Shown in pieces: positions 21,970 through 37,480 of a stretch of DNA of 64,000 nt. A program made the position numbers and the translations under genes. The stretch's first letter is position 1, and every line of letters starts with the position of its first letter. Location: IMG/VR virus record IMGVR_UViG_3300009008_000010, positions 56,241-120,240 of that record, one strand, 5' to 3'. The stretch comes from a virus. The notes beneath the pieces are model-generated. The model did not search any database. It was not told the DNA's origin and saw nothing but the letters and a program-made list of their open reading frames with translations.

Positions 21970-22545
21970 ATGAGCTACAATGAGCTTATGATTGCTTGTT
22001 CTCGTCACAAAATGTTCGAGGAAAACATCAGTCTGGTGACAAGTTATGTTTTGAAACATCACCCCCCAGATGGTGGATTTCCTGTAGAGGATACCGAAGA
22101 GTATTCATGGGGGAGTTTTGGCCTCTGGAAAGCCTGTTTAACCTTTGAGGTTGATCAGGGTAACAAGTTCTCTACCTACGCCTATTACTGCATACGAAAT
22201 GCCATTATCAACGGGTTTCGGCAAAATTCTCGACTAGCTCCCACGATTGATCCGCTTGAAATTGATGGAAAAAATTGTAGTTCGGATGATGTTCACAATC
22301 CATTTCAAATGGTGGAACTTATCTTGAAAGAGGGCAACGACGAGAAGCCCAGAGATAAGGTGGACAGACAGATGTTGGTAATGTACTACCTAGACGACAT
22401 GACTTTGGAAGAGGTAGGAAAACGATTCCAGGTTACGAAGAATCGGGTTCGTCAACGGATAGGTAGAGCCATTAAAGTTATTCGCCAGAGGTATCGGTCT
22501 TTATTTGAGAGTGATCAAAATGCCCAAGAATCTTTCGGAATTTGA
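21970..22545 (+). CDS. sigma-70 family-like RNA polymerase sigma factor
   Basis: 191 residues. A region-2-like helix set (GSFGLWKACLTFEVDQGNKF followed by STYAYYCIRNAIINGFRQ) and a C-terminal region-4 HTH (DDMTLEEVGKRFQVTKNRVR). Probably redirects host polymerase to phage promoters. It precedes and overlaps the ubiquitin-like cassette by 26 bases and may control it. Confidence 0.85.
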   Translation: MSYNELMIACSRHKMFEENISLVTSYVLKHHPPDGGFPVEDTEEYSWGSFGLWKACLTFEVDQGNKFSTYAYYCIRNAIINGFRQNSRLAPTIDPLEIDGKNCSSDDVHNPFQMVELILKEGNDEKPRDKVDRQMLVMYYLDDMTLEEVGKRFQVTKNRVRQRIGRAIKVIRQRYRSLFESDQNAQESFGI

Positions 22546-24825: not shown

Positions 24826-26313
24826 ATGTCCAAGTCGCTTCCTCCGCTACCGCCGCTTACGTCACTTGCGTCTTTGACTCCTGTGTTTCTGGCCAAAAAG
24901 GGTGTGCAACTCCCCCAAAAGGGAACGTTCTTCCTGATTGCGGCTAATGGCGCATTTGTTCGCAAGGACACTGGTATTTTCGAGGGGCTGGTATCTGTGC
25001 CCTTCAAGGATGTTCCGGGTATCAACTCGATAGGCTACTGCCTACCCACAGAGCAAGGCCCGGTCTTCTTCAATTCTACCAGTGTCAAGCAGAAGACCTA
25101 CAGTGGTGGTTGGTTTGGCAAGGATGACGATGACGATGCATCCCTTACCAACGTCAAGATGGTCAACCCTCTGACTGGCAAGGCTGTTTCTGAGGAAGAT
25201 GATGACGAAGCCAACAAGCTGTTGAGCGCTCGTCCCTACATCAACATGAATCTGCCGAAGATTCCGCCTGAGATTATCTATCGGGCGTTGCTGTTCTTCC
25301 GCAAGGTTTACCGCAAGCACAGATCAGAATCGGCTGTCATTCTGTGCTTCAATGTGGAAACGAACGAATATTCCCTGTATTGCCCGAAACAGGACGTGAG
25401 TGGTGCGCATGTCGATTATGACCGTCGCTACTACAAGCGAACCAAGAGGGGTGAAGTTCACTTTCCCCCGGATCACGAAACCCCGGATCAGAACTACGGC
25501 AAGGTTGACCCGGTGATGTGTGAAATGGTGAAGAATGGTTTCCAAATGGTGGGTTCCATTCACAGTCACGCCAACTTTAGTGCGTTCCACAGTGGAACCG
25601 ATACCCACGATGAGGCCAGCATGAATGGCGTGCATATCACGCTGGGTCATGTTGCCGATGGTGAGTTTTCGTGGGCATCATCCTTGGCGTTGAACGACCA
25701 CCGAGAACAGGTCGAAGCTGAAAATGTTGCCGTGGGCGTTGTGCGGGTTGGTGATCAGAAAGCCGCCAATAGCAAGTGGATTTCCACTGGTTCGCAGAAC
25801 TATTACAACATCGAGTTGGAAGATTTGTCGGCAATTCACGATGAATACGACAAGTTTATTGACGACAACTGGATGGATAAGGTGGAACACGGTTTTTTCG
25901 GTGGGAAGGGGAATCGGGTTGCGGGTGCATCCTATGGGGGTTCCTCTTACTCGCGTTCGGGTGGATATTCCTCATCGCCCTATGCGGCGGGCTGGGAGTA
26001 TGAGGAAGATGACGATGGCCTAGAGGGTGGCACTTCCTATGTCATGGTAAATGGCCAATGGGTGCCCGCCAAGGAAGCCGAAGAAATCGAGAAGCAGGCT
26101 GCTTTCGATGCCGATGCTGATGCTGGCACCGATGGTGACGCTGACGACGATAAGCCTGATAATGTCGATGATGCCCTCACCGAAGTTAGCGAAGCTGCTG
26201 ACGACGATACCGACAGTTGGGCAGAATACGAAAAAGAACAGGGCGAGACTGCTGAGGCTACTGAGAGTCCCGCTACTGGCGATGAAGGCGATGATTTGAC
26301 AATCATTGACTAA
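24826..26313 (+). CDS. JAMM/MPN deubiquitinase-like metalloprotease (PRTRC-A-like)
   Basis: 495 residues. N-terminal domain (1-140), then a JAB/MPN domain. The zinc motif is exact: His246, His248, Ser256, Asp259 in HSHANFSAFHSGTD (HxH-x7-S-x2-D), with Glu168 a likely catalytic acid. Cleaves a ubiquitin-like protein from targets or trims its precursor. The C-terminal 110 residues are acidic and disordered. Lies directly before the E1 and Ubl genes. Confidence 0.85.
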   Translation: MSKSLPPLPPLTSLASLTPVFLAKKGVQLPQKGTFFLIAANGAFVRKDTGIFEGLVSVPFKDVPGINSIGYCLPTEQGPVFFNSTSVKQKTYSGGWFGKDDDDDASLTNVKMVNPLTGKAVSEEDDDEANKLLSARPYINMNLPKIPPEIIYRALLFFRKVYRKHRSESAVILCFNVETNEYSLYCPKQDVSGAHVDYDRRYYKRTKRGEVHFPPDHETPDQNYGKVDPVMCEMVKNGFQMVGSIHSHANFSAFHSGTDTHDEASMNGVHITLGHVADGEFSWASSLALNDHREQVEAENVAVGVVRVGDQKAANSKWISTGSQNYYNIELEDLSAIHDEYDKFIDDNWMDKVEHGFFGGKGNRVAGASYGGSSYSRSGGYSSSPYAAGWEYEEDDDGLEGGTSYVMVNGQWVPAKEAEEIEKQAAFDADADAGTDGDADDDKPDNVDDALTEVSEAADDDTDSWAEYEKEQGETAEATESPATGDEGDDLTIID

Positions 26314-26375
26314 AAATTGGAGACGTGAGAGGAAAGCCTATTAGTCAATGAAACTTGAAGCGTGGAGAAAGTCGC

Positions 26376-27149
26376 ATGAAAGTCAAGGTTATTGGTTGTG
26401 GGGGGATCGGCGTCCATTTGTTGGACCCTTTGTGCCGGTTCCTCAATTATCACAAGGATTTCAGTGAAAGTGGCGATTGTGAAGTCACTTTGATTGATGG
26501 TGATAAATACGAAGAACACAACAGGGAACGTCAATCGTTTGAGTCTTTCGGAAACAAGGCTGAAGAAACTGCCAATCGGTTGAAAGAAGAATTCCCGAAC
26601 ATTTTTTTCCGGGTTGTGACTGATTATCTTGGAGAGGATAATATCGTCTTGCATTTGCGAGAGAGCGACGTGATCTTCTCCTGTGTGGATAATCATTCCG
26701 CACGCAAGTTGTTTTCTGATCACTGCGAAGATTTGGATGACGTTTTGCTGATTTCAGGTGGTAACGACTACCATGATGGTAATGTTCAAATCTTCCATCG
26801 GAAGGAAGGACAAAATTGGAGTTTGCCGCTTACTGGTCGGCACACTGATGCGATCACAGGCGACGAAGCGTTTTATCACCCTGAAATCGAAGAGCCGGAA
26901 GACGAAAATCCGGCTGATGCAGAGGAAAGGGAAGCTGGTTGCGATGTAGAACAAGAGCATGAACCGCAGTTGGTATTTGCAAATAATTCCGCCGCGTGTC
27001 ACATGATGAACATGTTCTACCGTTACCTGGAAATCGGTAGTTTCGATTTCGATGAGTTGTATTTTGACTGCCGTAGTGGCAAAGTCAGAGTTGTGAATCG
27101 TATGGGTTCCGAAAGACCTAGTTCCTTAACCAAGTTGGAGGTTGCATAG
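26376..27149 (+). CDS. E1/ThiF-like adenylyltransferase
   Basis: 257 residues. The ATP-binding loop GCGGIG (7-12), DGDKYEEHN and RERQ (acidic, Asn and Arg residues that contact ATP and the Ubl tail), and SCVDNHSARK are the E1/ThiF/MoeB signature. It would adenylate the C-terminal Gly of the neighbouring Ubl. No CxxC zinc pairs are seen; Cys residues in EAGCDVEQ and SAACHMM are candidates for thioester formation. Confidence 0.85.
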   Translation: MKVKVIGCGGIGVHLLDPLCRFLNYHKDFSESGDCEVTLIDGDKYEEHNRERQSFESFGNKAEETANRLKEEFPNIFFRVVTDYLGEDNIVLHLRESDVIFSCVDNHSARKLFSDHCEDLDDVLLISGGNDYHDGNVQIFHRKEGQNWSLPLTGRHTDAITGDEAFYHPEIEEPEDENPADAEEREAGCDVEQEHEPQLVFANNSAACHMMNMFYRYLEIGSFDFDELYFDCRSGKVRVVNRMGSERPSSLTKLEVA

Positions 27150-27150
27150 C

Positions 27151-27480
27151 ATGACGCAACGACAAACGACCAGTAACAGTGACGCCAAGGCCAGTGCCGC
27201 TAACGCCAGTGGAGGCGTGACAGGGCAGGCCGACACCAGTGCCGCTCAGGACAAAGTAAACGAGGCTCTAGGGAGCGTCGAGGTCATGTATGGTGCGGAG
27301 TCGCAGGAACTTGCGATTGCCGGTCATACGGTGTCCGACGTGCGTTCTCACCTGAAGCACGTTTTGAATATTCCCGCCGACGCCCAGGCCCGTGTCAACG
27401 GCGAACTGAAGGACGGCGACTACGTTCTTCTGGAAAACGACACCCTGGAATTCGTGAAGGTGGCTGGCCAAAAGGGGTAA
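27151..27480 (+). CDS. ubiquitin-like protein ending in Gly (PRTRC-C/ThiS/MoaD-like)
   Basis: 109 residues from ATG 27151. Disordered Ser/Ala N-terminus (1-35), then a beta-grasp domain: SVEVMYGAESQEL, VSDVRSHLKHVLNI, ARVNGELKDGDYVLLENDTL, EFVKVAGQKG. The chain ends in Gly109, so no trimming is needed before activation by the adjacent E1. Likely the modifier of the system. Confidence 0.8.
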   Translation: MTQRQTTSNSDAKASAANASGGVTGQADTSAAQDKVNEALGSVEVMYGAESQELAIAGHTVSDVRSHLKHVLNIPADAQARVNGELKDGDYVLLENDTLEFVKVAGQKG

Positions 27481-27539
27481 ACGGCCAGACAGAGTTTCCA
27501 AGGGTAAGGAACCCGATTGCCCTCTGGCTGTAAATACTC

Positions 27540-27567
27540 GGCCCCCCGTGTAGCACGGGGGTGCCGG
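27540..27567 (+). terminator. GC-rich hairpin between Ubl gene and csrA
   Basis: CCCCCGTG TAG CACGGGGG with flanking GGC/GCC pairs; no T run follows. May be an attenuator, a processing site or an mRNA stabiliser. Confidence 0.5.
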
Positions 27568-27612
27568 GTGTTTCCTTATTGCGGAAATGGATTTTCAAAA
27601 AGGGCTAGGATT

Positions 27613-27804
27613 ATGTTGGTTCTATCTAGGAAAAAGAACGAGAGTATCGTGATCGATGAACACATCACGATCACGGTGGTGGAGGTTCGGGGCGACAAAG
27701 TAAGATTGGGTATTGATGCTCCCAAAGAAGTTCCAGTTCACCGGAAGGAAGTTTGGGAAGCCATCAGAAGAAACAACGAGGCATCCGATGGTGATACGTC
27801 ATAA
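27613..27804 (+). CDS. csrA: CsrA/RsmA RNA-binding regulator
   Basis: 63 residues, the normal length. Begins MLVLSRKKNESIVI; ITITVVEVRGDKVRLGIDAP and VPVHRKEVWEAI match the CsrA core, including Leu4 and Arg-containing RNA contacts. CsrA dimers bind GGA motifs near start sites and repress or activate translation. Its own leader has several GGA triplets (27583-27610), suggesting autoregulation or a phage-specific target set. Confidence 0.93.
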   Translation: MLVLSRKKNESIVIDEHITITVVEVRGDKVRLGIDAPKEVPVHRKEVWEAIRRNNEASDGDTS

Positions 27805-28066
27805 TTATCCATACTGGATCGTTGTGACAATATCAGGCAGATTGCCAACCCCGCCTCAATACCGACACACCCCAGTTCAGAAATTATTTTTCACTGGGAA
27901 GATTGGTGGCACGAAAAGAGAAGAATTTGAAACCGATGATTTTCAGGAAGCGCGGCAACATGCTTTGATTGCTGAGCGAAATGGAAAACGCATCGAATTC
28001 CTCAAGGTGTCGCGTCCCGGTGGGCCGCGACACCTTTGCAATTGGAGAGGAATTTTAAATGGATGA
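27788..28066 (+). CDS. hypothetical protein downstream of csrA
   Basis: 92 residues, ATG 27788 inside the end of csrA. Basic, beta-rich start (YWIVVTISGRLPTPPQY), FFTGKIGG, then a helix. No family recognised; overlaps the next gene by 8 bases. Confidence 0.6.
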   Translation: MVIRHNYPYWIVVTISGRLPTPPQYRHTPVQKLFFTGKIGGTKREEFETDDFQEARQHALIAERNGKRIEFLKVSRPGGPRHLCNWRGILNG

Positions 28067-28571
28067 AGACCAATTAGCAACTGCTGAAGAGCAGCTTGAA
28101 GAAGAGCTAGAACAGCCCGCAATTAAGCGACTCCCCGGCCATTACAGGTATCGGGTGGTTTACATGGCAGGTCAGATTGAAAACTTGCGCGGGTGGTATG
28201 CTCAATTCGATTTAGAGGAAGTCGAGGCTCCGGTTGATAACGGTGATGGTTTCGATGCGGTGGTTTTAAAAGCCCCTGAAGAACGAGTGGTGCAAGCCAA
28301 CCTTGAATGTTTAACCATCGTGCAGTCTGTTGAAAAGCTGCCTTCTAGGACCATTCTTACATTTGAGTTGGGGGACTGCCCGCAGCATGACAAATCTGTA
28401 GGTGAAATGCGGACGGGATTTGAGAAGATTCTACGCGAAACCTGCGATTACAATTGCACAATCAAGGTTTCCAAGGATGGCCAGCCTGTGCTGGATGATT
28501 ACGTGCCCCAGGATGGGGATTCTCTCCTGTTCGATACGACTGAAATTAAAAATGAGGCTGAAAATGAGTGA
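28059..28571 (+). CDS. second beta-grasp (ubiquitin-like) protein
   Basis: 170 residues. The C-terminal part TIKVSKDGQPVLDDYVPQD followed by GDSLLF mirrors the end of the Ubl at 27151 (KDGDYVL...DTLEF). The first half (TILTFELGDCPQ, RYRVVYMAGQIENL) may be a second domain. The tail is acidic and lacks a terminal Gly, so it may be a partner rather than a modifier. Confidence 0.5.
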   Translation: MDEDQLATAEEQLEEELEQPAIKRLPGHYRYRVVYMAGQIENLRGWYAQFDLEEVEAPVDNGDGFDAVVLKAPEERVVQANLECLTIVQSVEKLPSRTILTFELGDCPQHDKSVGEMRTGFEKILRETCDYNCTIKVSKDGQPVLDDYVPQDGDSLLFDTTEIKNEAENE

Positions 28572-28881
28572 AGGCCAGCGAGTCAAAGTTTGGAATGGTG
28601 ATCAGTCTCAATTTCTAGGATTTGGTCGATACGTGGATGATGTTATCACGTATGCCGCCCTCATGCCGGATGGTAGCCTCAGATCATCCAGAAACGCCGA
28701 GGAACCCATTCCTGCCGATCAGCTTCCCGAAGGTGCCATCGTCCAAGAGTTGCCTAAGAATCCCAAAATTGTGCTTGATAATGGACAGGTGGTGTATGGT
28801 TGCCAAGTTTGGTGGGAGTCTGTTGCGGAAATGGTGACGGTAGATGAGGACGACGGTTATGACCCGTGGGCTGATGAGTGA
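28564..28881 (+). CDS. hypothetical protein with DPW tail
   Basis: 105 residues, overlapping the previous stop by 8 bases. Beta-rich (KNPKIVLDNGQVVYGCQVWW). Ends YDPWADE, a C-terminal motif shared with genes ending at 30270 and 31010. Confidence 0.65.
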   Translation: MSEGQRVKVWNGDQSQFLGFGRYVDDVITYAALMPDGSLRSSRNAEEPIPADQLPEGAIVQELPKNPKIVLDNGQVVYGCQVWWESVAEMVTVDEDDGYDPWADE

Positions 28882-29074
28882 TTTAATAGGATGCTTATGT
28901 TCACGCCGTTGGTTTCAGGTATTTTCAAAAAGGGCTGAGAGCGGACAAGAATGGACTTTGGCTGCAATTAGAGTGCAATTGCTGTCTTGGACAAGTCTAT
29001 GCAGATTTCATAGAGCGAAGGTATCGTTGCAGCAAGTGTTCTGGGTTGGATCGTTATCTTATTTGGATTTTTGA
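28874..29074 (+). CDS. small Cys protein, possibly frameshifted into a zinc ribbon
   Basis: In frame from ATG 28874 the product is 66 residues with no clear fold. The +1 frame from about 28930 encodes LECNCCLGQV ... RYRCSKCSG, a good zinc ribbon with no start codon of its own. TCAAAAAGGG at the junction is a plausible slip site. Either programmed +1 frameshifting or a broken gene. Confidence 0.35.
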   Translation: MSDLIGCLCSRRWFQVFSKRAESGQEWTLAAIRVQLLSWTSLCRFHRAKVSLQQVFWVGSLSYLDF

Positions 29075-29075
29075 A

Positions 29076-29420
29076 ATGAAAAAAGTAGTCATTGTCAAAG
29101 CTGACACGAACGATGCGGATTATATCACTGAGGAACACCTTTTGGATGGTGAAAATGATCCCACAGGCGAGTATGAGGATCTGATTCGCAAGGTGGCGGG
29201 GGTAATTAAAACTTACACCCAAGAACACAAGTGGCAACACAACTGGCCTACTAGCGAATATGCCGATGGTTCTCTACAAGAACTTTACGCCGGTCAGTTG
29301 ACCGATGATGAAATTGCGGAATTCCAAGAGTATGTTCCTCATGGCGAGCATGGTGTTCATACCATTAAGTCCATCAGGATTATCGTAATATCCGAAGATG
29401 ATGAATTGGTTGACGCATGA
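29076..29420 (+). CDS. hypothetical protein
   Basis: 114 residues from ATG 29076. Beta strand KKVVIVKADTND, a helical centre, strand IKSIRIIVISEDDE. Compact alpha/beta domain; unknown. Confidence 0.65.
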   Translation: MKKVVIVKADTNDADYITEEHLLDGENDPTGEYEDLIRKVAGVIKTYTQEHKWQHNWPTSEYADGSLQELYAGQLTDDEIAEFQEYVPHGEHGVHTIKSIRIIVISEDDELVDA

Positions 29421-29617
29421 ACAAAGAACACGCCAAGCGAATCCGAGATCACCAACTTGCTATTTTGATGCGCACGCTACGTGTAACTGAACACGCCAGC
29501 GCCCCGTTTATTCAAAATTGCATGGAACATGCTTTTGAGGCTGGCGTAAGTGCGGCAACACCCATCGCAGAACAAGCGGTAAGAGAAGCGTTGGCCCAGA
29601 GTCGGGAATTGCACTGA
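29417..29617 (+). CDS. small helical hypothetical protein
   Basis: 66 residues, 4-base overlap upstream and 1-base overlap downstream. All-helical, His/Ala-rich. Unknown. Confidence 0.6.
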   Translation: MNKEHAKRIRDHQLAILMRTLRVTEHASAPFIQNCMEHAFEAGVSAATPIAEQAVREALAQSRELH

Positions 29618-30270
29618 TGACTATTTTCGATGAACTATTTTTAAAACAATCTGTTCACGTCCATTCGCTCCCACCCCATAGCGACATGGCGGCTAGGGGT
29701 AAATTGGTTGGTGATTCGGTCACTGCCATAATTGATATTCTCCGCAACCCTTCTTTAACACCTTGCCGTAGGGTCAATGCCCTTGCTGCATTGCAGTGGG
29801 ATTTGATTGGTAGCCTCATGGTCCCTACTGCTTTGGCTGATGTTCCTCAAGTGCATTTCGGCGCACACGTTTCCAATGATGAAAAACAAGCCGTAATTCT
29901 ATGTCCTATGGATTTCTACGAAAGCATCAAAAAGGATTTTATTTTCTGTGCTGGGGCAATGGTTTTTGTGGGTAGCCAAGCACGGGATTGGTATAACGAC
30001 AAGCTGGCTTGGATAGATGATGAAGGTGTCCATGATGGTCGGGAGGAAGTAGCCAATCGTGCCAGGGCTTACGAGGCCGAATGGTTGTTATTTATTCAAA
30101 GCCTAGACATTGGCTACGAGTTTAATGAATATCAACAGAAGATTGTGGAAGACTCACCAGAGGGCTTGGATAGTCACCCAGAACTAATTTATGATTCTAA
30201 GTTTTTCATTGCTGGAAAACCGACAATCGAAAGGCCCCCGGAACCACACGATCCGTGGCAGGAGGATTAA
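29617..30270 (+). CDS. hypothetical protein with DPW tail
   Basis: 217 residues. PVQ-like strands (VHFGAHVSNDEKQAVILCP) and helices; ends PHDPWQED, the shared acidic C-terminal motif. Unknown. Confidence 0.65.
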   Translation: MTIFDELFLKQSVHVHSLPPHSDMAARGKLVGDSVTAIIDILRNPSLTPCRRVNALAALQWDLIGSLMVPTALADVPQVHFGAHVSNDEKQAVILCPMDFYESIKKDFIFCAGAMVFVGSQARDWYNDKLAWIDDEGVHDGREEVANRARAYEAEWLLFIQSLDIGYEFNEYQQKIVEDSPEGLDSHPELIYDSKFFIAGKPTIERPPEPHDPWQED

Positions 30271-30606
30271 ATGATACCATTATGCATGGTGACGTATGAA
30301 GGCGAAGGCGAGTGGCTAAACATAGGAGAAGATGAATACGCAAATGAATGCAGACCTGCTACGGATGCAGAGGCCACGCTTGAATTGATGGCCGAATGTT
30401 TGGATCGGGATGCAGAAAATCGTAATGCACATGATTTTGTTTGCTGTCATCTTGGATTGGCTGCTTTGCTAACACAGGAAGTGGGTGAAGAAGCTGCTAC
30501 AAAAATTATGAGGCGTCTAGCAGGCTATGGTGGGCTTCATGGCATGACTGGTGTGTGCGGTGCAGGCGACGGTAGCGCAGAAGAAGATTTGGGTGTCAAA
30601 TTATGA
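30271..30606 (+). CDS. hypothetical protein
   Basis: 111 residues directly after the previous stop. A helical middle (HDFVCCHLGLAALLTQEVG) and a Gly-rich tail. Unknown; overlaps the next gene by 4 bases. Confidence 0.6.
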   Translation: MIPLCMVTYEGEGEWLNIGEDEYANECRPATDAEATLELMAECLDRDAENRNAHDFVCCHLGLAALLTQEVGEEAATKIMRRLAGYGGLHGMTGVCGAGDGSAEEDLGVKL

Positions 30607-31010
30607 AATTTGCATTCCATCCTGATTTTTCAGAAAGAAGGGAAGCAGAGATTCCTTATATCGCTGCTTTTTCTCCCATGCTGCGCGCAGCCGTGGGTGC
30701 CATGCAAGCTAAAGAAAAATTGGCCATGCAAATCGAGGCAGTGGTTAAAGACATTGCCACCAACCAAGAGATAGCAGATTCGCTCAAGCAGCCTGTAGAC
30801 GGCATGAACGTAAAAGAAGTAGAATTAAAAACTTCACCAAACGAAGATGCTGTTGTAATTGCTCGGTGTTTTGTTGGGTGGGAAGAAGAAAGAAATGTTT
30901 GGGTTGTTTGGGTAGAAGGTGGGCCAGAGAATCATTGGAGGCCACATTTCGATTCTATTTATGACCCTTGGCATGAAGAAAGTGACCCTTGGGAGATAAC
31001 AAATGAATGA
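30603..31010 (+). CDS. hypothetical protein with DPW tail
   Basis: 135 residues. Helical N-terminus, Trp-rich C-terminal strands (NVWVVWVEGG). The tail contains the motif twice: YDPWHEE and SDPWEI. Unknown. Confidence 0.65.
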   Translation: MKFAFHPDFSERREAEIPYIAAFSPMLRAAVGAMQAKEKLAMQIEAVVKDIATNQEIADSLKQPVDGMNVKEVELKTSPNEDAVVIARCFVGWEEERNVWVVWVEGGPENHWRPHFDSIYDPWHEESDPWEITNE

Positions 31011-31392
31011 CGATTGGGATGGCCCGCCGAAAGTCACTGCTACTGAGGAAGCAGAGGATTATGAATTCTTCCTGGTTCCTACTGTGTTGGGCCAAGATTT
31101 TGGCATTCAGTTGGAAGGCTCACATGATTTATTTTATCCTGTGTTCACCAATGAAGTGACGCTGAATGAATATATGGTGCATTTCAGCAAGAAGTTGGGG
31201 ATGGAGTTGGCAGGCAGTTGGGCAGTCCAAAGAATTGAAGGCATGGCTATGGAAGCCCTTTTTGAAGTGTTGCAGGAAAAAGGGGCGCGTATGATGATTG
31301 ATCCGGTTGCGGTCAGTGAACACCATACGACATGGAGAGAGCGAGTGAAGGTTGGGGATTTGTGGAAATATCAAGATTTTGAGAGCAATTAA
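31003..31392 (+). CDS. hypothetical protein
   Basis: 129 residues. Acidic start, then beta (YEFFLVPTVLGQDFGIQL) and helices. Overlaps both neighbours. Unknown. Confidence 0.6.
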   Translation: MNDDWDGPPKVTATEEAEDYEFFLVPTVLGQDFGIQLEGSHDLFYPVFTNEVTLNEYMVHFSKKLGMELAGSWAVQRIEGMAMEALFEVLQEKGARMMIDPVAVSEHHTTWRERVKVGDLWKYQDFESN

Positions 31393-31556
31393 TGACGCTT
31401 CTTCTCGACGGAACCATTCAAGATAAACCGTTGTCGCCCGGCGAAACTCAAAAGAACCTATATGACTGGCTCACTAAAGTTGAGAAAAAGCCCGGCTGGA
31501 ATACGGCGTTCGGTCGTGAGTGTAGTAGACTAGACGTAGGAGAACCCGAAGCGTGA
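31392..31556 (+). CDS. small hypothetical protein
   Basis: 54 residues; the ATG shares a base with the previous stop. MTLLLDGTIQD then a short helix. Unknown. Confidence 0.5.
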   Translation: MTLLLDGTIQDKPLSPGETQKNLYDWLTKVEKKPGWNTAFGRECSRLDVGEPEA

Positions 31557-31571
31557 GAAAAGAGATAAACC

Positions 31572-31781
31572 ATGCGAAAATATCTGGTGAAGTCTTTACT
31601 GGAACACACCAGGGATGCAGATGATGTTGAATTTGAAAAGGAATTTAATGCCCCAGACAGAGAAACGGCCATCGAATTGGCGGCTGAAAATGCCAAAATG
31701 ATGGTCGAAGATTTGGAGGCTGAATTTGATGAAGGCGAATCGGTATTTGCTATCAGAATACTTTCGTGCGAGGAAATTTAA
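31572..31781 (+). CDS. small acidic hypothetical protein
   Basis: 69 residues: strand MRKYLVKSLL, a helix rich in Ala/Glu, strand SVFAIRILS. The beta-alpha-beta pattern resembles many small phage regulatory proteins. Unknown. Confidence 0.6.
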   Translation: MRKYLVKSLLEHTRDADDVEFEKEFNAPDRETAIELAAENAKMMVEDLEAEFDEGESVFAIRILSCEEI

Positions 31782-31783
31782 AA

Positions 31784-32299
31784 ATGGCAACAACTTATCT
31801 GACTCGTTACCATGAAGAAATTGAGGGTGTAAAATCTGGCGATGTTTCTTTAAGCTGTTTAAGCTACAGGGAAAGGGAGGTTGTCAAGTTAATTGTTCAA
31901 GGATACACTCGAAAACAAATTACGGCGATTTTCAAAGTTACGAAGGCATGTGTTGCACAAGTAGAATTAAATGCTTGGGATAAACTTCGCCGTCAGCAGC
32001 GACGATTAAAAAGAACTGCTGAAATGAAAAATATGAGTAAAGAAGAGTTGCTTCAATGCTCTTTTCTTGATTTAGACTTTTCTAAGAAGAACGAAACTAA
32101 CACTCGCAGGGTTCTTCGTTTTAATCTAGCCCGCAAGAAAACCGGCGATCCTAGAAGTGAAGCGACCGTAACCATTGGGGATTTAACAGAATGTAATGCC
32201 GATGAGTTGCTGGCTTTCGAGGGTTTTGGCAAAGCAGCATTACTTCAGGTCCGTAATAAATTAGCCAAATACGGTTTAGAGTTGAAAGGTGAAATATGA
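31784..32299 (+). CDS. HTH protein fused to RNA polymerase alpha-CTD-like domain
   Basis: 171 residues from ATG 31784 (GAGGAAA upstream). Residues 24-70 are a LuxR/sigma-4-type HTH (LSYREREVVKLIVQGYTRKQ). Residues 128-168 (TIGDLTECNADELLAF followed by GFGKAALLQVRNKL) match the helix-hairpin-helix domain of the alpha C-terminal domain, which binds UP elements and activators. The fusion could dock on polymerase or mimic alpha at phage promoters. Confidence 0.8.
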   Translation: MATTYLTRYHEEIEGVKSGDVSLSCLSYREREVVKLIVQGYTRKQITAIFKVTKACVAQVELNAWDKLRRQQRRLKRTAEMKNMSKEELLQCSFLDLDFSKKNETNTRRVLRFNLARKKTGDPRSEATVTIGDLTECNADELLAFEGFGKAALLQVRNKLAKYGLELKGEI

Positions 32300-33069
32300 C
32301 CCAATATTCATCGGACGGCAAAGGCAACTGGTGGAAAACTGTTTGGGAAGAACAGTGCCCAGAGTTTGTGGGTATTGGCGGGATATTGGCCAAGATAAAA
32401 GATGGGGAGGAGTGGTCTACTCGCCACCTTCGCTGCCAAGGCGTGAAAGGACACAAGGGGTTGCATTGGCGGTATGGACCTTGTGGCTCGTATGAATGGG
32501 ATGACAACGAAGAGGATTCAACTGAAGAAGGATGCTGTGGAACCACACCACCAGATCACAAGAAATATGTTGCGCCTCAAAGGAAGTGTGAAGAGCACTG
32601 GATGAATTTTAAAACCACTACGAAGGTGGAAGATCCAGAGAAGATTGCGGCATTGGAGCGTGGCGAGTATGAGGATGGTGCGGGTGTTGACAAACCCGTG
32701 GATTTTGATGAAATGGACCCTGAAACAAGGGAAGAAATTCAGGAGAGGATGGGAATTCGTAAGGCCGAACCAAGATTGTTTTATCTTGTTCGTGACGGCG
32801 ACATGGAAAATACCATCCCGATTGTAACCATAGATCCCAGAGATGCCCGTTGTGAGATAGGCAACGAAGATCATGGTGCGATGCCTTACGAAATTTGGGA
32901 TAAGTTGCTTGACCAAGGGGATGTGAAACAAATTAAAAAGAATGATTGCCCCACAGAACTTATGGGCGCGATCCCGTTTGGAGAAGTAAACGGGTGTATG
33001 TATGATTTCACCTGTTCTCAATGGTGTCAGATGATGGACGAAAACGGAGTGATTCACTTGGAGGAGTGA
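32296..33069 (+). CDS. Cys-rich hypothetical protein
   Basis: 257 residues, 4-base overlap with the alpha-CTD fusion. Cys/His cluster in the first third (HLRCQGVKGHKGLHWRYGPC) and CSQWCQM near the end suggest zinc binding. Unknown. Confidence 0.6.
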   Translation: MTQYSSDGKGNWWKTVWEEQCPEFVGIGGILAKIKDGEEWSTRHLRCQGVKGHKGLHWRYGPCGSYEWDDNEEDSTEEGCCGTTPPDHKKYVAPQRKCEEHWMNFKTTTKVEDPEKIAALERGEYEDGAGVDKPVDFDEMDPETREEIQERMGIRKAEPRLFYLVRDGDMENTIPIVTIDPRDARCEIGNEDHGAMPYEIWDKLLDQGDVKQIKKNDCPTELMGAIPFGEVNGCMYDFTCSQWCQMMDENGVIHLEE

Positions 33070-33219: not shown

Positions 33220-34233
33220 TTATATAGAAGATTTAAATATGAGTTCCTTCACGGGTTCCTTGGCCTGTTTGATTCCGCCTCGGTAATTTATGTAGTCACA
33301 TTCTGTGACTACCACATTTCCGAAGACTTCTTCCATGAGTTTTACCATCGCTTCTGGACTCATATAGCCCCTGGAATTATAAGACACCACAACTGCGTTG
33401 GTTCTATCTTTAATTTTGTTGAAAAGTGAGGTAAAGGTTTTAAAGAACTTCTGCTTGTAGCAGTATGGGGATTTGAATAAGTTGGGGTCTATGCCGCTAA
33501 CTTGCTTGTCTTTAGGAGTGTATCTTTCTTTGAATGGTCTGCACGCTTGTTCTAGTAAATGATAGTTACCTGAATATTGATGAATGTTGTAAGGTGGATC
33601 AATGTAGATCGCATTGTAAAATGTGTCTGTTTTATTGAAAAACTCTTCTGCCTCATGTTGAAATGCTTTGCCTTGGGGGCCATTCGGCAGGATGGGATTT
33701 TCTAGTTGTATGTGTGTAGTGATTCTCTTCTTATTGGAAGCATACACATATTTATACACACCTTCATTTCTAGCATTGCCAGCTATTTTCTTGTGGAACG
33801 ATTTGAACATTCCTGAAGTGTTGGCGTGAGTTGACATTCGATATATCAATTCACAAAGAGCAACAGATCGGTAAGGGTAGTTGCCCCATATTTTTTCGAG
33901 AACCGCGTCGATGAAAATACCGTTTTTTTCTGTAAAAAAGAGGCGTTTGGAAGGCGGGCTGTAGTATTTGGAGAAAAATCGTTCTTTGGGTTCACCAACT
34001 TGATTCAGATCAGAAATGTCAGGGACTTCATTGTGTTCTAAATACGTTTTATTGATGTGGTAGGAATACGAGGCCATATCATTTGCGTGGACCTGGGAAC
34101 CTTGTTGTCTCAGGTGGTATGCAACAACACCACTGCCGCTAAATAGGTCGCAGACAAGTTCTTGCGCCCCGATTGTTTCAAGGATTGGCTTGATCAGCTT
34201 TCTTTTGTTTCCGAGGTATGGGATGAATCTCAT
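33220..34233 (-). CDS. DNA adenine-N6 methyltransferase (Dam/D12 class)
   Basis: 337 residues. PYLGNKRKL and DLFSGSGVVAY bind S-adenosylmethionine; YIDPPYNIHQYSGNYHLLE carries the catalytic DPPY. Length and motif order fit the D12 class. Likely protects phage DNA from restriction or marks it for packaging. Only large minus-strand gene in the second half; convergent with 33071. Confidence 0.9.
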   Translation of the reverse strand: MRFIPYLGNKRKLIKPILETIGAQELVCDLFSGSGVVAYHLRQQGSQVHANDMASYSYHINKTYLEHNEVPDISDLNQVGEPKERFFSKYYSPPSKRLFFTEKNGIFIDAVLEKIWGNYPYRSVALCELIYRMSTHANTSGMFKSFHKKIAGNARNEGVYKYVYASNKKRITTHIQLENPILPNGPQGKAFQHEAEEFFNKTDTFYNAIYIDPPYNIHQYSGNYHLLEQACRPFKERYTPKDKQVSGIDPNLFKSPYCYKQKFFKTFTSLFNKIKDRTNAVVVSYNSRGYMSPEAMVKLMEEVFGNVVVTECDYINYRGGIKQAKEPVKELIFKSSI

Positions 34234-36876: not shown

Positions 36877-37251
36877 ATGGCACATAAAGCACACTTTTTG
36901 CGTCGTCCGAAGACAACGCAAGAGCGGAGAGCTAACGGAAAAAGAACAGAACAGCGCGACCTAGAATATAAAATTCGCGCTAAACGTAGCGGAGCTAACC
37001 TAGTTGATGCATGGGATGATATTTGCACCAGCGTCAGCACGGGTTGGAAAGCACAAACTAAAAGAAAAAAACAATACAAGGTAATTAACTTTGAGAACCA
37101 AACAGGTAATCGTGATCCGAAAGGATCTGAAGATGAGGCGGGGGAAAGAGATTGCACAGGGCAGTCACGCCTCGATGGCCTTTCTAACCAGAAGGTTAAA
37201 AAGACCATCATCCTGGTTCCGATTATTCTGGTTGTTGTTATCGACGGTTGA
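36877..37251 (+). CDS. basic protein overlapping pth2
   Basis: 124 residues as annotated. Basic N-terminal 70 residues (KAHFLRRPKTTQERRANGKR) look genuine; the last 55 overlap the peptidyl-tRNA hydrolase gene in another frame and look like a shadow. Perhaps the original stop was lost. Likely RNA-binding. Confidence 0.5.
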   Translation: MAHKAHFLRRPKTTQERRANGKRTEQRDLEYKIRAKRSGANLVDAWDDICTSVSTGWKAQTKRKKQYKVINFENQTGNRDPKGSEDEAGERDCTGQSRLDGLSNQKVKKTIILVPIILVVVIDG

Positions 37252-37480
37252 AATTAAATGGCTCAGCGATTCGTTCGCAAAAGTCGTTTGCCGTGTGGAT
37301 AGCCTCGATGAATTAAAAGAAATTGAGGCGCAGGCAAAAGAGGCGAACCTGGAAGTTCATTTAATTGTCGATAGTGGACGAACGGAGTTCAACGGGGTGC
37401 CGACGCCAACGTGTTTGGCAATCGGTCCTGATGAAGCAGATAAAATTGACGAAATAACTGGGGGGTTAAAACTGTATTGA
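37091..37480 (+). CDS. peptidyl-tRNA hydrolase, type II (Pth2)
   Basis: 129 residues from TTG 37091. KQVIVIRKDLKMRRGKEIAQ followed by GSHAS is the Pth2 signature with its catalytic Lys and His; LVVD-type segment HLIVDSGRTEF and TCLAIGPDEADKI complete the fold. Frees tRNAs from stalled peptides. Pth2 is the archaeal/eukaryotic type, rare in bacteria; here it sits within the tRNA array. Confidence 0.9.
   Translation: MRTKQVIVIRKDLKMRRGKEIAQGSHASMAFLTRRLKRPSSWFRLFWLLLSTVEIKWLSDSFAKVVCRVDSLDELKEIEAQAKEANLEVHLIVDSGRTEFNGVPTPTCLAIGPDEADKIDEITGGLKLY

What the first reader, a model, noticed from the sequence alone, without database searches (positions are those of the whole stretch)
31784..32299. 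HTH domain fused to an RNA polymerase alpha-CTD-like domain
An N-terminal LuxR/sigma-4-type HTH and a C-terminal helix-hairpin-helix matching alpha-CTD (GFGKAALLQVRNKL) in one small phage protein. It could replace or block the host alpha-CTD at promoters.
Basis: partly seen in the sequence, partly recalled or inferred. Interest (0 to 1): 0.75.

Follow-up and report, generated by a model that had tools for sequence, protein, structure and literature searches.

The report
Phage regulator joining two polymerase-like domains
A large phage carries a small predicted DNA-binding protein that joins a sigma-factor-like helix-turn-helix to a worn-down copy of the host RNA polymerase alpha-subunit tail; the same pairing recurs in other phages, so it is most likely an undescribed phage gene regulator rather than something unique.

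Summary
Window 31784-32299 (+) encodes a 171-aa protein (P0001) in a 120-kb virus record. Residues 23-69 are a sigma-region-4/LuxR-type HTH. Residues 127-168 are an HhH whose best match, in Pfam, NCBIfam and the PDB, is the RNA polymerase alpha-CTD, though below Pfam's cut-off.

The fusion is better supported than either half. An HMM built from nine viral "sigma4 HTH + alpha-CTD" proteins, without P0001, hits it collinearly in both domains (42.9 bits; best of 2000 shuffles 11.4), and it ranks first of 7105 ORFs. The refuting test (a better HhH family) was run and failed: a helicase-HhH model scores 0.7 bits. However, helicase HhH tails reach about 19 bits on alpha-CTD models, so the margin is small.

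Two corrections. The architecture is not unique: 18 of 41 alpha-CTD-bearing viral loci have it, one on a 258-kb contig. And only the second half of the alpha-CTD is recognisable; R265, N268, K298 and S299 are replaced, so replacing or blocking the host alpha-CTD is not supported.

Most likely it is a phage transcription regulator acting with host polymerase and the phage's own sigma factor (21970-22545). No close homologue was found. No function was tested.

The parts
31784..32299 (+). P0001, 171-aa HTH + alpha-CTD-like protein
   Evidence: ORF with RBS; fusion HMM 42.9 bits
31770..31774 (+). Shine-Dalgarno-like GAGGA, 9 nt before ATG 31784; argues for ATG 31784 over the GTG at 31766
   Evidence: read directly from sequence
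31850..31990 (+). sigma-region-4/LuxR-type HTH, residues 23-69
   Evidence: GerE 23.9 and Sigma70_r4 20.9 bits; 26.8 bits of the fusion HMM; AlphaFold pLDDT 84-95
31991..32161 (+). long helix/linker and a low-confidence stretch (residues 70-126) where helix 1 of a true alpha-CTD would lie
   Evidence: pLDDT about 35-45 for residues 93-128; substituted 265-determinant positions
32162..32287 (+). alpha-CTD-type HhH, residues 127-168 (TVTIGDLTECNADELLAFEGFGKAALLQVRNKLAKYGLELK)
   Evidence: PF03118 only Pfam match of the domain; rpoA models; three helices 131-135, 139-143, 150-162
32296..33069 (+). downstream gene, 257 aa, unknown, 4-nt ATGA overlap with P0001, so probably co-translated
   Evidence: no Pfam or PHROG match
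31572..31781 (+). upstream small ORF, 69 aa, unknown, same strand, 2 nt before P0001
21970..22545 (+). the phage's own sigma factor (region 2 + region 4), possible functional partner (inferred)
   Evidence: Sigma70_r2 36.7 and Sigma70_r4 43.8 bits, both over cut-off

Best explanation
P0001 is a phage-specific transcription regulator. Its sigma-region-4-type HTH binds a promoter-proximal DNA site. Its C-terminal alpha-CTD-type HhH, a divergent copy of the alpha-CTD module seen in other phage proteins, provides a second, weak DNA or protein contact (sigma4, host alpha-CTD or self) that tunes host RNA polymerase at phage promoters, alongside the phage's own sigma factor. Shown by computation: the two domains, their order, and the recurrence of this architecture in other viral contigs. 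Inferred: DNA binding, contact with polymerase, the link to the sigma factor, and the direction of regulation (activation slightly more likely than repression).
For: Both domains found independently and collinearly by a fusion HMM that did not include P0001: 42.9 bits, shuffles at most 11.4, top of 7105 ORFs. 18 of 41 viral alpha-CTD loci carry sigma4 HTH + alpha-CTD. Fusion-bearing contigs tested lack the rpoA insertion domain, and some carry a terminase match. The phage encodes a sigma factor with regions 2 and 4, so it redirects a polymerase; no polymerase subunit was noticed by eye among the larger ORFs of the record. AlphaFold with alignment: confident HTH, then helices in the alpha-CTD H2-H3-H4 order. 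Foldseek top hits are sigma region 4 and LuxR-type domains, with an alpha-CTD chain (9zum_E) further down.
Against: Each domain match alone is weak; the alpha-CTD match covers half the profile and lies below the curated cut-off. Typical -35-contact positions of sigma4 (E585, R588) and 265-determinant positions of alpha-CTD are substituted, so known DNA contacts cannot be carried over. No close homologue to show conservation of these parts. No expression or binding data.
Confidence: 0.55

Rival explanations
1. One reading: P0001 replaces or blocks the host alpha-CTD at promoters by occupying UP elements or activator surfaces.
For: The C-domain is closest to alpha-CTD. Phages do target alpha-CTD by other means: T4 Alt and ModA ADP-ribosylate Arg265 (PMC2988021), and Rac of phiKMV-like phages is reported to cause cleavage of the alpha subunit (PMC7552054).
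Against: R265, N268, C269, K298 and S299 equivalents are K, G, D, A, A and helix 1 is not modelled, so UP-element binding by the known surface is unlikely. No alpha-NTD to join polymerase.
Confidence: 0.12
2. The C-domain is a generic nucleic-acid-binding HhH (DNA repair or helicase type) that only resembles alpha-CTD; P0001 is an HTH-HhH DNA-binding protein not tied to RNA polymerase.
For: Helicase HhH tails from related phages score up to about 19 bits on PF03118 and 16.9 bits on the phage alpha-CTD model, close to P0001's 19.7-21.5. Only the HhH half of alpha-CTD matches.
Against: P0001's C-domain matches no HHH family in Pfam, whereas those helicase tails rank HHH_5 or Cdd1 first. It scores 0.7 bits on a helicase-HhH model. 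It keeps an alpha-CTD-like tail, KLAKYGLELKG, shared in part with Microbacterium phage Mazun gp26.
Confidence: 0.23
3. P0001 is a sigma4 mimic that docks on the beta-flap of host polymerase, like T4 gp33 or AsiA-type factors, and thereby redirects or shuts off host transcription.
For: Sigma4-type HTH with no region 2; minimal sigma or gp33-like HTH factors are described in jumbo phages (PMC7824862).
Against: Nothing in the sequence tests flap contact; the HTH matches LuxR as well as sigma4.
Confidence: 0.1

Closest known systems
Viral sigma4-HTH + alpha-CTD proteins (e.g. L103, L107, L118, L124; 18 of 41 viral alpha-CTD loci; one Clostridia MAG locus, L154)
   Same: Same domain order and near-same HTH register; fusion HMM matches P0001 in both domains.
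   Different: Those tested have an alpha-CTD far above Pfam's cut-off, with an intact R-x-x-N-C-L motif, and nearly all have the HTH above cut-off too. P0001 is shorter, about 15-26% identical, and lacks a recognisable helix 1.
Other phage alpha-CTD proteins: Microbacterium phage Mazun gp26, Bacillus phage Goe8 QDP42789, Ruegeria phage V16 gp23
   Same: Phage proteins carrying an alpha-CTD; Mazun gp26 shares the tail GLELKG.
   Different: No sigma4 HTH was found in them; the V16 protein is called pyrophosphatase in one record.
Bacterial RpoA C-terminal domain (PF03118)
   Same: HhH half: IGDL...ADELL...GFGKAAL...KLAKYGLEL.
   Different: No N-terminal assembly domain; helix 1 and DNA-contact residues replaced.
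Sigma-70 region 4 / LuxR-type HTH regulators
   Same: HTH scores 19-24 bits; model confident.
   Different: No sigma region 2 (not a sigma factor) and no receiver or ligand domain in front.

Membership tests
RNA polymerase alpha-CTD (PF03118) | Score over curated cut-off (23.8 bits) | tested here: not met
   19.7-20.0 bits
RNA polymerase alpha-CTD (PF03118) | Best match among all HhH-type families | tested here: met
   Only Pfam match of the C-domain; helicase-HhH model 0.7 bits against 21.5 for phage alpha-CTD
RNA polymerase alpha-CTD (PF03118) | Helix 1 with R265/N268 and the second DNA-contact set K298/S299 | tested here: not met
   K118, G121, A151, A152 in the ungapped alignment; region not modelled
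RNA polymerase alpha-CTD (PF03118) | Binds UP-element DNA or activators | not testable with these tools
   needs biochemistry
Viral sigma4-HTH + alpha-CTD fusion proteins | Both domains in this order, collinear with the fusion profile | tested here: met
   42.9 bits, two domains, P0001 not in the model
Viral sigma4-HTH + alpha-CTD fusion proteins | Intact alpha-CTD (R-x-x-N-C-L motif) | tested here: not met
   RKKTGDP stands where most members have VRSYNCL
Sigma factor | Region 2 (core and -10 binding) present | tested here: not met
   The record's only region-2 match is the separate gene at 21970-22545
DNA-repair or helicase HhH domain (HHH_5 and kin) | Pfam match to an HHH family | tested here: not met
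   none up to E=10, while control helicase tails do match

The most novel reading that the evidence does not exclude
P0001 and its relatives are detached promoter-upstream readers: proteins that carry, without the polymerase core, the two modules a bacterial holoenzyme uses to read the -35 and UP regions, and that pre-mark phage promoters or mask host ones. In P0001 both DNA-reading surfaces have been re-specified, giving a phage-private upstream code that works with its own sigma factor.
Probability: 0.2. Interest if true: 0.65.

Novelty: new variant of a known kind. Interest (0 to 1): 0.4.

Why it matters
If confirmed, it would add a phage strategy in which the phage makes its own covalently joined copy of two polymerase promoter-reading modules instead of modifying the host's alpha-CTD. 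The architecture recurs in viral contigs, but no paper describing it was found in seven searches of one open-access library. That makes it testable in cultured gut-bacterium phages or prophages with the better-preserved fusions, and P0001 shows how far it may diverge.

Tried and rejected
Homologues of P0001: none in INPHARED, viral contigs with whole protein or halves, or genome contigs. Searches with the downstream gene and the sigma factor found nothing. PrkA kinase as probe gave 80 related records. In 50 of them PF03118 hits were frames of about 690 aa, of the length of the helicase (L086 read and confirmed as its HhH tail), plus short fragments with stops; P0001 itself found nothing; in 49 the fusion profile found HTH matches, and the ORFs read looked like sigma factors with no alpha-CTD. 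Single-sequence AlphaFold was poor (pLDDT 57) and its strands are not trusted. Foldseek on the alignment-based model gave no hit below E 0.001. INPHARED rpoA-like hits in Salmonella, Listeria, Staphylococcus and Enterococcus 'phage' records look like bacterial sequence and were not used. Paper searches found no description of sigma4/alpha-CTD fusions.

Full report
What is there. Window 31784-32299 (+) encodes a 171-aa protein, P0001. A GAGGA motif lies 9 nt before ATG 31784, so that ATG is preferred to the GTG at 31766. The gene sits in a tight run of small + strand genes of unknown function, 2 nt after a 69-aa ORF and overlapping the next gene (257 aa) by ATGA. The window is part of a 120,240-base virus record, with 31 tRNAs in the window.

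N-domain. Residues 23-69 match GerE (23.9 bits, just over its cut-off when the domain is scanned alone), Sigma70_r4 (20.9) and other HTH families. Sequence alone does not decide between sigma4 and LuxR. The fusion profile, which is sigma4-based, gives 26.8 bits to this part. AlphaFold with an alignment gives pLDDT 84-95.

C-domain. Scanned alone, Pfam's only match up to E=10 is RNA_pol_A_CTD, 20.0 bits (19.7 in the whole protein), below the cut-off of 23.8 and covering profile positions 33-66 of 67. NCBIfam rpoA models reach E 7e-5. The PDB matches of this domain are RNA polymerase alpha subunits, apart from one oddity. Helicase HhH tails from this and a related phage hit HHH_5 or Cdd1 first and alpha-CTD second or not at all, whereas P0001 hits no HHH family. 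Against models built here, P0001's C-domain scores 21.5 bits (phage alpha-CTD), 18.0 (RpoA alpha-CTD) and 0.7 (helicase HhH); the best of 5000 shuffles reached 9.5 and 12.5 on the two alpha-CTD models. The control also shows the limit: one helicase tail reaches 16.9 bits on the phage alpha-CTD model, and about 19 on Pfam's, so the alpha-CTD call is a best assignment and not a certainty.

The fusion as a unit. An alpha-CTD profile found 41 viral loci. In 18 of them the ORF also carries a sigma4-type HTH in front (nine of these built the model; Pfam is over cut-off for both domains in 14 loci). One Clostridia MAG locus has it too (L154). Of the ten fusion-bearing records tested, none has the rpoA insertion domain, and five match a large-terminase model, three of them strongly; one, the record of L112, is a 258,509-base contig with a terminase match. 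An HMM from nine of these proteins, P0001 excluded, hits P0001 at 42.9 bits in two collinear pieces (26.8 and 15.7), against at most 11.4 in 2000 shuffles. Among 7105 ORFs of the window and 80 related loci, P0001 ranks first; second is the phage's own sigma factor, matched on region 4 only.

How it differs. In the ungapped alignment (phmmer against a solved alpha subunit; MAFFT), E. coli alpha R265, N268, C269, K298 and S299 correspond to K118, G121, D122, A151 and A152. Residues 93-128, where helix 1 should be, have pLDDT of about 35-45, while helices 131-135, 139-143 and 150-162 follow the alpha-CTD H2-H4 order. That model used the fusion proteins as its alignment, so it is not independent evidence for the fold. 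An insertion between a displaced helix 1 and the HhH is possible but untested. In the HTH, E585 and R588 of RpoD correspond to A55 and A58, and Q589 is kept (alignment; residue roles and numbering from general knowledge). Both DNA-reading surfaces have therefore changed.

Mechanism. Shown: domains, order, recurrence, and a co-encoded sigma factor with regions 2 and 4. Inferred: the HTH binds DNA near phage promoters, and the alpha-CTD-type module adds a second contact. The replace-or-block model is less likely because the known UP-element surface is lost and there is no alpha-NTD. Phage attack on alpha-CTD is known by other routes, such as T4 Alt and ModA at Arg265 (PMC2988021).

Novelty. Phage proteins with alpha-CTDs are already in databases under names such as DNA binding protein or RNA polymerase subunit alpha, and the sigma4/alpha-CTD pairing is common in the viral loci found. 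No description in papers was found. P0001 is a divergent, orphan variant. In about 50 related PrkA-bearing phage records no such fusion was seen, though the records may be fragments.

Noticed in passing
window 24826-27149 (+): A Prok-JAB domain gene (24826-26313) followed by a ThiF/E1-like gene (26355-27149): a possible phage ubiquitin-like conjugation or deconjugation module.
   Followed up: no
L003 7313-12432 (record 27313-32432): PrkA-like kinase followed by what look by eye like UPF0229/YeaH-like and SpoVR-like genes; the first gene as probe matched 129 viral contig stretches, on contigs up to 320 kb. None of the three names was checked against a library.
   Followed up: partly
window 35921-59099: 31 tRNA genes, and an ORF at 37091-37480 that resembles archaeal-type peptidyl-tRNA hydrolase by eye (not tested).
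   Followed up: no
L003 13453-14844 and L004 4431-7292: DNA polymerase III alpha appears split into two separate genes about 10 kb apart (by eye); split phage DnaE is described in PMC7824862.
   Followed up: no
L002 5072-7090: Ski2-like helicase with a C-terminal HhH; such tails in related phages give misleading alpha-CTD matches (about 19 bits on PF03118).
   Followed up: yes
L133 1266-2288: A viral-contig protein fusing a GNAT acetyltransferase to an alpha-CTD, suggesting alpha-CTD is reused as a module on different enzymes.
   Followed up: no
window 33220-34233 (-): D12-class adenine methyltransferase on the minus strand, amid + strand genes next to P0001.
   Followed up: no
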